Below are positions 17,222-22,347 of a stretch of DNA of 35,236 nucleotides, one piece after another. A model generated the notes under the pieces. That model was not told the origin of the DNA. It ran no database searches and saw nothing but the letters and a program-made list of their open reading frames with translations. The DNA comes from a virus: positions 1 to 35,236 of the IMG/VR virus record IMGVR_UViG_3300028388_001992; one strand, 5' to 3'. The position numbers were made by a program, and so were the translations under genes. Position 1 is the stretch's first letter, and every line of letters starts with the position of its first letter.

Positions 17222-18013
17222 ATGCCTACTAGCATATTCTTTAACGGGCAACGGCGCTTTAGACCGTCAGTGTATGCCCGCGTGATTAACAACCTGACTG
17301 AGCAAGCCGCGCCGTCAACAGGCAACCTTGCGCTTGTGGGTGACTTCCCTCAACTCAAGCAAGCAACGCCAGTGCGCTTCACAAACAGCCTTGACCTTGC
17401 AGACTACATGCGCGGCACAAACGGTGACATTGACACCGCCGCCGCGCTCATGTTCAAGCCGCTTGAAGGTGACGGCACGATTGACAGCCTGACGCTTGTG
17501 AGCGCAAACGAGTCAACGCAAGCCAGCACAACAAACGGCGGTGTCAAGGTCAAGTCACGCTTGTGGGGTGTTGACGGCAACCGCATCAAGGTCAAGATTG
17601 CGAGCAACGCAAGTGACGCATCACTGTTTGATCTTGAGGTCATTGAGGGTGTGACCAGCCGTGAAAAGGTTGAAGCGCTGGGTGACGGTGCGGTTGCGTC
17701 AATTGAGTATGTGTCAGCACAAGCAAATGAGACGCTCTCACGCATGAGTCTTGAGGTTGATGCAACTGACTTTAACATTGAAGCGGGGCTGTCATATCTT
17801 GAAGCCGCTGTGCAAGGCGGGGGTGATTTACTTGTAGGTGACACCCCTTGCAACAGCAACGTCACCTTGACCGTTGTTGACGCACAGAACACACAAAGTA
17901 CAATCAACCTAAGCGGTTTAGGGCTTAACGGTGTTGTCACTAGTGAGTCAATCACAATACCCGCAAACGCACAGGCGGGTGACACGTTTGTGTCAAACCG
18001 CGCTTACTGTTAA
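17222..18013 (+). CDS. Tail sheath protein, N-terminal fragment
   Basis: 263 codons in this frame. The sequence begins MPTSIFFNGQRRFRPSVYARV and continues with NLALVGDFPQLKQATPVRFT and a GDGTIDSLTLVSANESTQAS segment; this is the start of a contractile sheath protein, which stacks around the tube and drives penetration. Reading is sheath-like to about codon 260 (VSNR) and then ends in AYC and a TAA. The rest of the protein is in another frame downstream, so the gene is split. See the frameshift site. If joined, the full protein would be about 610 residues, a normal sheath size. Confidence 0.8.
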   Translation: MPTSIFFNGQRRFRPSVYARVINNLTEQAAPSTGNLALVGDFPQLKQATPVRFTNSLDLADYMRGTNGDIDTAAALMFKPLEGDGTIDSLTLVSANESTQASTTNGGVKVKSRLWGVDGNRIKVKIASNASDASLFDLEVIEGVTSREKVEALGDGAVASIEYVSAQANETLSRMSLEVDATDFNIEAGLSYLEAAVQGGGDLLVGDTPCNSNVTLTVVDAQNTQSTINLSGLGLNGVVTSESITIPANAQAGDTFVSNRAYC

Positions 18014-19052
18014 GTCACTGGGTGACGAGTTGTCAGGCGCGTTCACAATCACAACGCCCGCCGCAACGCTCGCGGGTAGTGATCTCGACGCAATGGCTAG
18101 TGCAACAATCTTTGACACCGCACGCTCATTCACGGCTGACGCAATCACAATCATTGACTGGTTTAACGGGTCAGCGTTTGTTGAGGCTGAACGGGTCAGC
18201 AACACTGTTGTCACCCCCGCCGCAAATGCCGTGCGTATGCTGGGCGGGTCAAAAGATGCGGTCATTTCAAGTGATGACTGGCAAGCGGCGCTTGACTCAA
18301 TCAAGCGCGTTGACATTAACATTGTTGTGCCGTTCAATGACACACTTGCGGTTGCACAGCTTGCCGCACAGCATGCGATTGACGCGGCACAAGACGCCGG
18401 TTATGAGCGTAATGTGTGGGTGGGCACAACCAGCGCACAGACTGTTCAACAGGCTTATGCGGGCTGGTCAAAGCAACTCAATGACCGCAATGTTGCTGTC
18501 ACACCTCAGTCAATCATTGTTGACGGCAAGACGCTTGACCCGCGCTTCACCGCGTGCTTGCTCGCGGGTATTCAGGGTGCAACATCAATTAGTGAGCCGA
18601 TGACACGCAAGCGCCCTACTGACGCGGTGACGGGTACGGTTGAGAACTTCAACCGTGAAGATGACGCCAGCCTTGCAATCAGGCGTGGGCTTGTGATCTT
18701 TGCTGACCCGTCATCAACGGGCTTGCGCGTTGAACGCTCTGTGACAACGTGGCTTAAAGATGACAACCCTGTTTATTCTGAGGTGAGCGCAAATGAGTCT
18801 GTTAACCAGTCAATCAGGCTGTTGCGCGCTGACCTGAATGCACAAGTAGGCACAAAGGTCACAGAAGCACGCCGCACTGTTGTTGAAAAGGTTGCTGAGA
18901 AGTCACTTGCTGAACAGAAGCGCAACGGAATCATTAAAGATTTCAGAGACTTAACTGTCACGCTTGAAGGTGACATTGCAAATGTCATTTACAGCCTTGC
19001 GGCGGTTGAGCCTTTGAACTTCATCACAGTCACCGCAAACATTGTGCGCTAA
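17931..19052 (+). CDS. Tail sheath protein, C-terminal fragment
   Basis: Open in the next frame from 17931, but the first 24 codons look like noise; sheath-like sequence begins near 18003 with ALTVKSLGDELSG. The body has the strongly conserved sheath C-terminal pattern: YERNVWVGTTSAQTVQQAYA, DPRFTACLLAGIQGATSISE, RKRPTDAVTGTVENFN, IRRGLVIFADPSSTGLRVER and SIRLLRADLNAQVGTKVTEA, then EKSLAEQKRNGIIKDFRDLT. The end LNFITVTANIVR is the typical interlocking strand. An internal ATG at 18093 exists, but no ribosome-binding site supports separate initiation. Confidence 0.8.
   Translation: MLSLVSQSQYPQTHRRVTRLCQTALTVKSLGDELSGAFTITTPAATLAGSDLDAMASATIFDTARSFTADAITIIDWFNGSAFVEAERVSNTVVTPAANAVRMLGGSKDAVISSDDWQAALDSIKRVDINIVVPFNDTLAVAQLAAQHAIDAAQDAGYERNVWVGTTSAQTVQQAYAGWSKQLNDRNVAVTPQSIIVDGKTLDPRFTACLLAGIQGATSISEPMTRKRPTDAVTGTVENFNREDDASLAIRRGLVIFADPSSTGLRVERSVTTWLKDDNPVYSEVSANESVNQSIRLLRADLNAQVGTKVTEARRTVVEKVAEKSLAEQKRNGIIKDFRDLTVTLEGDIANVIYSLAAVEPLNFITVTANIVR
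17990..18013 (+). other. Frameshift junction in the tail sheath gene
   Basis: Frame changes between GTG-TCA-AAC-CGC and CTT-ACT-GTT-AAG. The tract reads CGCGCTT; inserting one more CG (CGCGCGCTT) would restore N-R-A-L-T-V-K in one frame. So loss of a CG dinucleotide, real or an assembly error, explains the break. No familiar programmed slip site is visible. Confidence 0.7.
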
Positions 19053-19063
19053 AGGGTTGAACA

Positions 19064-19591
19064 ATGGCACTTAATAACATCAGATCAATCAACGGCGCAA
19101 ACGCGCTTGTGAAGGTAGGAAACAAAACGCTGGGGTATGCAACCGGCGTGACCGTCAATGAGGTTTATGGGCTTCAGCGTATTGACGTGCTAGGTGAGAT
19201 TGACAGCCGTGACATTGAACCTATCGGGCGCGTTGTCAATGTTCAGGTTTCATTTATCCGTATGACCCCGAACCCCGCGAGCGGTTCACAAGACGGCAAC
19301 AGGGGCGGCGGGTCAGCACAGCGCGGGCTTGTGCCGCACGCAAAGAGCGAAGATGACAACCGCGAGAATACAGAGATTGTGACAAGTTTCTTTGAAGATG
19401 GATTTGATCTCGATATCTTAGACAGCGGCAACTTTGACGGTAATAGTGAACCAGTCTTACGTTATACCATTGTTGGTTGCCGCCCCTCATCACAGAGCTT
19501 TGCTATCACACGCGGCACGCTTATGGGCGTGAACGTGACCTGTGAAGCGTTGCGCATTGTTGAGAAGGACTTTAGAGACACACACGCTTGA
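19064..19591 (+). CDS. Tail tube protein
   Basis: 175 residues, ATG 19064 behind AAGGG, 11 bases after the sheath stop. Tube proteins form the rigid inner tail channel. The pattern GANALVKVGNKTLGYATGVT, QRIDVLGEIDSRDIEPIGR, and the final strands RYTIVGCRPSSQSFAITRG and MGVNVTCEALRIVEKDF fits small myovirus tubes. A Gly/Asn/Ser-rich loop (PASGSQDGNRGGGSAQRG) is inserted at about residues 71-88. Gene order sheath-tube-chaperones is classical. Confidence 0.85.
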   Translation: MALNNIRSINGANALVKVGNKTLGYATGVTVNEVYGLQRIDVLGEIDSRDIEPIGRVVNVQVSFIRMTPNPASGSQDGNRGGGSAQRGLVPHAKSEDDNRENTEIVTSFFEDGFDLDILDSGNFDGNSEPVLRYTIVGCRPSSQSFAITRGTLMGVNVTCEALRIVEKDFRDTHA

Positions 19592-19651: not shown

Positions 19652-20152
19652 ATGAGCAAACGCACAGTCAACTTGCGACAAATGAAAGCTGACGCTGAAG
19701 CGGCGGCCACAAGCCCCGCTGAAGTGACGGCTGACCGCACACCTGTTGTGCCGCGTCAACTGGCAATCTCAGTGACGTATGACGCGCCTGACGGCAACAC
19801 ATACACAGATGACCTTCAGTCTGTGATTCTCAACAGTGACGGGCGCATGACTAAAACTCGTTTGATGAACTCACTGACGCAAGGCATGATTGCCGCAAGC
19901 CTACCTGAAGGTGAGCAACTGAGAATTGAAGCGCTTGCGCGTCTCGTCACACAACTTGATGACGCACCTGAATGGGTGATGACGTGGGCTGGTGAAGATC
20001 TTGAATTGTTGAGCGTGATCAATGAAGCGCTAGTGAAGCATGAGAATGCCTACTTTCGCGGCAACACTAGAAAGGGTGAAGGCGGTGCGCTCAAGCCCCG
20101 CATTTCAATTGATTGCCCCGCACTTGATCAAGCAAGGGTTGCCGCACCCTGA
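19652..20152 (+). CDS. Tail assembly chaperone, first (non-shifted) product
   Basis: 166 residues, ATG 19652. Tail assembly chaperones bind the tape measure protein while the tube polymerises. Features are a charged N-terminal helix (MSKRTVNLRQMKADAEAAA), a beta-like LAISVTYDAPDGNTYTDDLQ, and the helical TRLMNSLTQGMIAASLPEGE and LVTQLDDAPEWVMTWAGEDL stretches, as in gpG-type proteins of myoviruses. It ends ...RVAAP with CCC-TGA at 20147-20152. The following frame continues sensibly right after this stop, so this is the short form of a frameshifted pair. Confidence 0.8.
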   Translation: MSKRTVNLRQMKADAEAAATSPAEVTADRTPVVPRQLAISVTYDAPDGNTYTDDLQSVILNSDGRMTKTRLMNSLTQGMIAASLPEGEQLRIEALARLVTQLDDAPEWVMTWAGEDLELLSVINEALVKHENAYFRGNTRKGEGGALKPRISIDCPALDQARVAAP

Positions 20153-20319
20153 TGACCCGCTTGCACCTGAGAACGCGGAATACGCGCTGATATGTCTTGA
20201 TGATGAAGGGTGGAATACAGTTCTTAGAACCGCTATAAGTGAAGGTAACTACAAACAATCAACAGGCGTGAAGGTCTTTGATGATCTTGAGCGCGCCTTT
20301 GAACAGGGGGCTGACTTTG

Positions 20320-20348
<29 letters not shown>
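20040..20348 (+). CDS. Tail assembly chaperone, frameshift extension (GT-like)
   Basis: Open in the +1 frame across the end of the first chaperone gene. Used with a shift at the CCC-TGA junction it adds 65 residues, DDPLAPENAEYALICLDDEG through ELISKRFK, giving a fused product of about 231 residues. The ATG at 20040 could only start a 102-residue stand-alone form and has no good ribosome-binding site. Position between tube and tape measure and the two-form layout match lambda G/GT-type systems. The tape measure start (20320) lies inside its end. Confidence 0.75.
20144..20156 (+). promoter_or_regulatory. Probable programmed +1 frameshift site
   Basis: The zero-frame reads GCA-CCC-TGA-TGA. The proline tRNA on CCC can slip one base to CCT, placing GAT-GAC-CCG in the A site and producing a sensible continuation (A-P-D-D-P-L). 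Proline or similar codons followed by a TGA stop are known +1 shift sites (eukaryotic antizyme TCC-TGA; proline shift sites have been reported for Listeria phage PSA). Tandem TGA codons may slow termination. A downstream stimulatory fold was not established. Confidence 0.65.

Positions 20349-22343
<1,995 letters not shown>

Positions 22344-22347
<4 letters not shown>

What the first reader, a model, noticed from the sequence alone, without database searches (positions are those of the whole stretch)
20147..20156. Tail chaperone +1 frameshift at a proline codon directly before TGA
The zero-frame ends CCC-TGA-TGA; slipping one base continues D-D-P-L-A-P-E-N with no gap in sense. Most known tail chaperone shifts are -1 on heptameric slippery sites; +1 at a stop is uncommon in phages and recalls antizyme-type shifting.
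Basis: partly seen in the sequence, partly recalled or inferred. Interest (0 to 1): 0.65.

Follow-up and report, generated by a model that had tools for sequence, protein, structure and literature searches.

The report
Phage tail chaperone +1 frameshift, UUU_CGC
A phage tail-building helper gene is very probably read in two ways because some ribosomes skip one base, but the skip is at a phenylalanine codon (UUU followed by CGC) 31 codons before the stop and not at the proline codon next to the stop; the same UUU_CGN signal recurs in distant bacterial and archaeal viruses and in influenza PA-X.

Summary
The sequence is as described: ORF1 (19652-20152) ends GCA-CCC-TGA-TGA, and ORF2 continues in the +1 frame to 20348. 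The gene pair is a tail assembly chaperone (TAC) between tail tube and tape measure. A +1 shift is well supported; the proposed site is not. CCC_TGA occurs only in the window and one close relative. Other relatives end ORF1 with GCT, GCA, GAA and other codons while ORF2 stays in +1. ORF2 is conserved for 30 codons upstream of the CCC.

The conserved site is TAC_TTT_CGC (20051-20059). In-frame TTT_C is present in all 30 TAC lineages examined, and TTT_CGN in 29. They include 12 window-family lineages, SPO1, K, A511, Thermus phage Lalka8 and archaeal HF2. No ATG, GTG or TTG precedes the site in the ORF2 frame in at least seven. In K, phiSHEF16 and A511 only six codons could host the shift. UUU_CGN is the +1 motif of influenza PA-X and plant amalgaviruses, and was proposed once before for TACs of haloviruses. 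SPO1 and Adastra records already annotate a +1 product. The window is a new member; the class-wide motif appears unreported in the library I could search. Nothing was tested in cells.

The parts
19652..20152 (+). ORF1, tail assembly chaperone N-terminal (short) product, 166 aa
   Evidence: Open frame. Lies between tail tube and tape measure, as in the related loci. AlphaFold model matches Herelleviridae tail assembly chaperones by Foldseek (Bacillus phage JL TAC E 5.9e-4, probability 1.00).
20051..20059 (+). Proposed +1 shift site TAC_TTT_CGC; P-site tRNA-Phe slips from UUU (20054-20056) to UUC (20055-20057), next codon GCG at 20058
   Evidence: TTT_CG in frame in 28 of 28 lineages in the census, next best 5-mer 10 of 28, plus L077; the thirtieth lineage, Eldridge, has TTT_CAA.
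20037..20348 (+). ORF2, +1 frame; C-terminal extension of the long product, read from 20058 after the shift
   Evidence: Conserved from F-A/E onwards in all relatives.
20147..20152 (+).
   Evidence: Only in the window and L014. At most a minor, lineage-specific second site.
20040..20048 (+). ATG AGA ATG, the only ORF2-frame start codons upstream of the shift site
   Evidence: No well-placed Shine-Dalgarno by eye. Absent in L037 and in six cultured TACs.
19064..19591 (+). Tail tube gene, inferred from position and conservation
   Evidence: Homologues at the same place in 6 loci; no PHROG match.
20320..22347 (+). Tape measure gene (probable ATG at 20320)
   Evidence: Long ORF immediately after the TAC; relatives have the same arrangement and similar N-termini. 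No PHROG match.

Best explanation
The pair 19652-20348 is a phage tail assembly chaperone gene of the lambda gpG/gpGT kind, read in two ways. Most ribosomes make the 166-residue ORF1 protein. A minority slip +1 at UAC_UUU_CGC (20051-20059): with UUU in the P site and CGC waiting in the A site, peptidyl-tRNA-Phe (anticodon GAA) re-pairs with the overlapping UUC, and translation continues GCG-GCA... into ORF2. This gives a 231-residue product whose first 135 residues are shared and whose last 96 come from ORF2. Shown: gene order, frame relation, invariance of UUU_C(GN), lack of an ORF2 start in several relatives, and a folded domain ending at the shift codon. Inferred: that the slip happens in cells, its efficiency, and the tRNA mechanism. 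By analogy with lambda, the short form would coat the tape measure and the ORF2 tail would recruit tail tube subunits.
For: (1) In-frame TTT_CG is in the region where a +1 shift is possible in 28 of 28 TAC lineages; the next 5-mer reaches 10 of 28. L077 adds one. Eldridge keeps TTT_C with CAA. (2) ORF2 is in +1 every time. (3) No ATG/GTG/TTG lies between the last ORF2-frame stop and the site in L037, EalM-132, Mecenats66, phiSHEF16, K, Grass and A511; in phiSHEF16, K and A511 only six codons could host the shift. (4) In the aligned cultured TACs (16-77% identity to SPO1) the only invariant residues are M1, I58 and the F-R pair of the site. (5) Third-position identity in ORF1 falls to 0.31 two codons before the site, then is 0.82 and 1.00 at TAC and TTT. 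(6) A scan allowing every synonymous codon of VEHExRYFR found ten contigs, all already among the relatives, all TAC_TTT_CGN. (7) The ORF1 model is ordered through residue 137 (F135 is the UUU codon) and mostly disordered after 140; its best named matches are Herelleviridae TACs. (8) UUU_CGU is the proven PA-X +1 site (PMC3498833), and in Salmonella tRNA-Phe slips +1 at UUU-CAA (PMC3617221).
Against: No proteomics or reporter data. The window itself has two ATGs upstream of the site in the ORF2 frame, so from this one genome internal initiation cannot be excluded. No conserved RNA structure and no correctly spaced Shine-Dalgarno stimulator was found, so efficiency is unexplained. In-frame TTT_CGN also occurs in other genes of some relatives (nine in-frame copies in L011, the TAC one included), so the motif alone need not be efficient. 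The profile match between the window family and cultured TACs is weak (E 0.0011, probability 20%).
Confidence: 0.88

Rival explanations
1. The +1 shift happens at CCC_TGA (20147-20152), where tRNA-Pro slips to CCU while termination is slow.
For: CCC_UGA is a real +1 site elsewhere: Listeria phage tsh genes, and E. coli pheL at 15% (PMC5009743). L014 shares it. The frame works.
Against: Absent from every other relative while ORF2 stays in +1. ORF2's conserved N-terminal part (FAATLERVKAVRSSPAFQLIAPHLIKQGLPHP) would be left out of the product. CCC_TGA follows from ORF2 coding H-P-D-D.
Confidence: 0.05
2. No frameshift: ORF2 is a separate overlapping gene started at ATG 20040 or 20046.
For: An ATG lies just upstream of the site in the window and most family members. 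L015, which lost the first ATG, has the second.
Against: L037 and six cultured TACs have no ATG/GTG/TTG there. The ATG comes for free from the conserved ORF1 codons CAT GAA. No well-spaced Shine-Dalgarno by eye. It does not explain why F-R of TTT_CGN is nearly the only invariant feature of divergent TACs.
Confidence: 0.06
3. The frame break is a sequencing or assembly error in one gene.
For: The same contig does have a broken tail sheath gene.
Against: The +1 relation recurs in every independent contig and in finished phage genomes.
Confidence: 0.01

Closest known systems
Herelleviridae / SPO1-type tail assembly chaperones (SPO1 gp10.2-gp11.1, Adastra tapemeasure chaperone, K, A511)
   Same: Gene order tube-TAC-tape measure, ORF2 in +1, in-frame TTT_CGN at or near the end of ORF1; SPO1 and Adastra records annotate a +1 product.
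   Different: The window family was not found by tblastn in cultured phages and is linked to them only by predicted fold and a weak profile match; its ORF1 runs 24-32 codons past the site, against 2-18 in the Herelleviridae.
HF1-group halovirus tail chaperones (HF2)
   Same: TTT_CGC in the TAC with ORF2 in +1; authors proposed TTT-CGn as the shift site (PMC7230728).
   Different: Archaeal hosts; site is 2 codons before the ORF1 stop; HF2 did not appear among tblastn matches here.
Influenza A PA-X and plant amalgavirus UUU_CGN +1 frameshift
   Same: Same core motif; SPO1, PHB04, ST4, K and phiSHEF16 even share UCC_UUU_CGN (PMC3498833, PMC5052127).
   Different: Eukaryotic ribosomes and unrelated genes; the window family has UAC (UUU in L030), not UCC, as the preceding codon.
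Lambda gpG/gpGT and other -1 tail chaperone shifts
   Same: Two-product tail chaperone upstream of the tape measure gene.
   Different: Lambda shifts -1 on a heptamer; here +1 at a single P-site codon.
Listeria PSA/A118/A500 tsh and SPP1 gp17.1*
   Same: +1 shift in a phage tail gene.
   Different: CCC_UGA or CCC_UAA sites in the major tail protein gene, not the chaperone (PMC5009743, PMC6316719).

Membership tests
Phage tail assembly chaperone with programmed frameshift | Two overlapping ORFs between tail tube and tape measure genes | tested here: met
Phage tail assembly chaperone with programmed frameshift | ORF2 in a fixed alternative frame across relatives, without a conserved start of its own | tested here: met
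   +1 in all; no start in L037 and six cultured TACs.
Phage tail assembly chaperone with programmed frameshift | Fold or sequence similarity to known TACs | tested here: met
   Foldseek BFVD: JL TAC E 5.9e-4 and 521B TAC E 1e-3, both probability 1.00. Sequence only weakly; no PDB match.
Phage tail assembly chaperone with programmed frameshift | Short and long products made in a fixed ratio and needed for tail assembly | not testable with these tools
   Needs proteomics and genetics.
UUU_CGN class of +1 frameshift sites | In-frame UUU followed by CGN where ORF1 and the +1 ORF2 overlap, conserved among relatives | tested here: met
   12 of 12 window-family lineages, 29 of 30 overall.
UUU_CGN class of +1 frameshift sites | Loss of shifting on UUU_CGU to UUC_AGA mutation | not testable with these tools
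   Shown for PA-X only (PMC3498833).
CCC_UGA +1 sites (Listeria phage tsh type) | CCC_UGA at the ORF1 stop conserved among relatives | tested here: not met
   Only window and L014.
Antizyme-type +1 shift | Shift at a codon directly before a stop, with the stop in the A site | tested here: not met
   The conserved site is a sense-codon pair 31 codons before the stop.

The most novel reading that the evidence does not exclude
UUU_C(GN) is the general +1 recoding signal for tail assembly chaperones across SPO1-type contractile-tailed viruses of bacteria and archaea. It needs little more than the P-site tRNA-Phe slip and a CGN codon in the A site (CGC, CGA or CGU; no CGG seen). Influenza PA-X and plant amalgaviruses would then have come to the same minimal motif on eukaryotic ribosomes.
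Probability: 0.7. Interest if true: 0.65.

Novelty: new member of a known kind. Interest (0 to 1): 0.52.

Why it matters
It moves the predicted shift site by 93 bases and gives a simple, testable rule (in-frame TTT_CGN, ORF2 in +1) for annotating a gene that is often split in two and misnamed. In K and A511, ORF2 scores best against a family labelled 'RNA polymerase beta subunit', and A511's record uses that name. If UUU_CGN works on bacterial, archaeal and eukaryotic ribosomes alike, it is a small shared test case for +1 slippage at a sense codon without an obvious stimulator; PRFect notes that no general motif has been identified for forward shifts (PMC10885494).

Tried and rejected
CCC_TGA as the site (not conserved). 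Separate initiation of ORF2 (no start in seven lineages). A conserved downstream RNA structure: RNAalifold gave 5 pairs and no covariation; single-sequence z-scores ran from -3.2 (K) to +0.9, window -1.85. A Shine-Dalgarno stimulator 3 nt upstream: none by eye; GTG GAG is well conserved 15 nt upstream in the window family but too far for the known +1 spacing. Avoidance of TTT_CGN elsewhere: the window has no other in-frame copy, but TTC_CG is as rare there and relatives have several, so not used as evidence. No relatives in the GTDB scans or, for four family members' ORF1, in INPHARED (one weak hit, E 0.08). L002 was a chance match. PDB sequence and fold searches gave nothing.

Full report
What was claimed, and what is there. 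The window is an IMG/VR virus record of 35,236 bases with portal, head protease, SPO1-type major capsid and tail sheath matches. ORF2's frame is already open from 20037, so the shift could lie anywhere in about 110 bases.

Relatives. Tail-tube, capsid and chaperone searches of IMG/VR gave 12 distinct lineages, the window included, with the same gene pair. ORF2 is in +1 in all. ORF1 ends differently...GCA CCC TGA in the window and L014...CCC GCT TGA in L015...TCA GCA TGA in L016 and L019...CCC GAA TAA in L017; unrelated tails in L022, L026, L030, L033, L034-L038 and L077. CCC_TGA is therefore not the conserved element, while ORF2 is conserved through the whole overlap.

Where the shift is. The one constant is TAC TTT CGN (TTT TTT CGT in L030), 24-32 codons before the ORF1 stop, at 20051-20059 in the window. 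ORF1 third positions vary up to the preceding codon (identity 0.31 at -2), then are fixed at TTT. ORF2 similarity starts at the F of this site. L037 has no ATG/GTG/TTG between the last ORF2-frame stop and the site; L034 has only a TTG. A scan that allowed every synonymous codon of VEHExRYFR found ten contigs, all already known, all TAC_TTT_CGN.

Outside the family. I then read the chaperone region of cultured phages chosen by capsid, sheath, tube or TAC similarity, not by the motif: SPO1, SP8, SBSphiC, Goe26, LysYB1, EalM-132, ST4, Touem01, PHB04, Mecenats66, phiSHEF16, K, Grass, Lb338-1, Iacchus, Lalka8, A511 and Eldridge. I added halovirus HF2 because of PMC7230728, where the motif had been noted. 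All have TTT_CGN in ORF1 with ORF2 in +1 except Eldridge, which has TTT_CAA at the same place. In phiSHEF16, K and A511 the shift can only occur within six codons and ORF2 has no start. An in-frame 5-mer census over the possible region gave TTT_CG in 28 of 28 lineages and no other above 10. The census region was anchored on the ORF holding the site, and lineages are not independent. A rough background of 3e-4 to 1.5e-3 per codon (codon totals of the other loci estimated from length) still gives about 1e-10 to 1e-16 for eight deep groups. In aligned cultured TACs F and R of the site are two of only four invariant residues.

Protein. The ORF1 model is confident for roughly residues 31-137 and mostly below pLDDT 50 after 140: the domain ends close to F135, the shift codon. 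Foldseek finds Herelleviridae tail chaperones; PDB gives nothing. ORF2 is predicted helical at lower confidence.

Mechanism. UUU_CGU is the site of the influenza PA-X +1 shift, where P-site slippage on UUU_C is the supported model (PMC3498833), and UUU_CGN is the amalgavirus motif (PMC5052127). In Salmonella, when tRNA-Gln is limiting, tRNA-Phe slips +1 at UUU-CAA, shown from the frameshift product (PMC3617221), which fits the Eldridge exception. CGG was not seen as the A-site codon; CGC, CGA and CGU were. I found no conserved structure or spaced Shine-Dalgarno. That the shift occurs in cells, and how often, is inference.

Known or new. Tail chaperone shifting is a known kind. SPO1 and Adastra records carry a +1 product; HF1-group authors proposed TTT-CGn (PMC7230728). 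I found no paper stating the motif for Herelleviridae or other bacterial phages, but the SPO1 genome paper is not held, so absence is not proof. The window is a new member. The wider pattern is the part of interest.

Noticed in passing
window 17222-19052: The tail sheath gene is broken: two ORFs (17222-18013 and 17931-19052). Relatives L014-L017 and L019 have one intact sheath ORF; against L014 the window lacks about 122 bases near 17997-18012, which changes frame. Assembly artefact or defective genome.
   Followed up: partly
window 20945-20990: Run of GGC repeats encoding a poly-glycine stretch in the probable tape measure protein.
   Followed up: no
window, whole: CCCTGA hexamer is about five times over-represented (45 against 9.2 expected); CCC_TGA is thus weak evidence here.
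   Followed up: partly
L057:5401-5937 (phage K ORF54), L069:3231-3824 (A511 gp027): ORF2 of Herelleviridae TACs matches phrog_1316 'RNA polymerase beta subunit' and is so named in A511, apparently a misannotation of the frameshift extension.
   Followed up: partly
window 20033-20038 and equivalents in the relatives: GTG GAG codons (GTG AAG in the window) 15-20 nt upstream of TTT have unusually conserved third positions (0.82) in the window family; SD-like, role unknown.
   Followed up: no
L072:2051-2473 (phage Eldridge): Only exception to CGN: GCC CGA TTT CAA TTC TGA, with ORF2 still in +1.
   Followed up: partly
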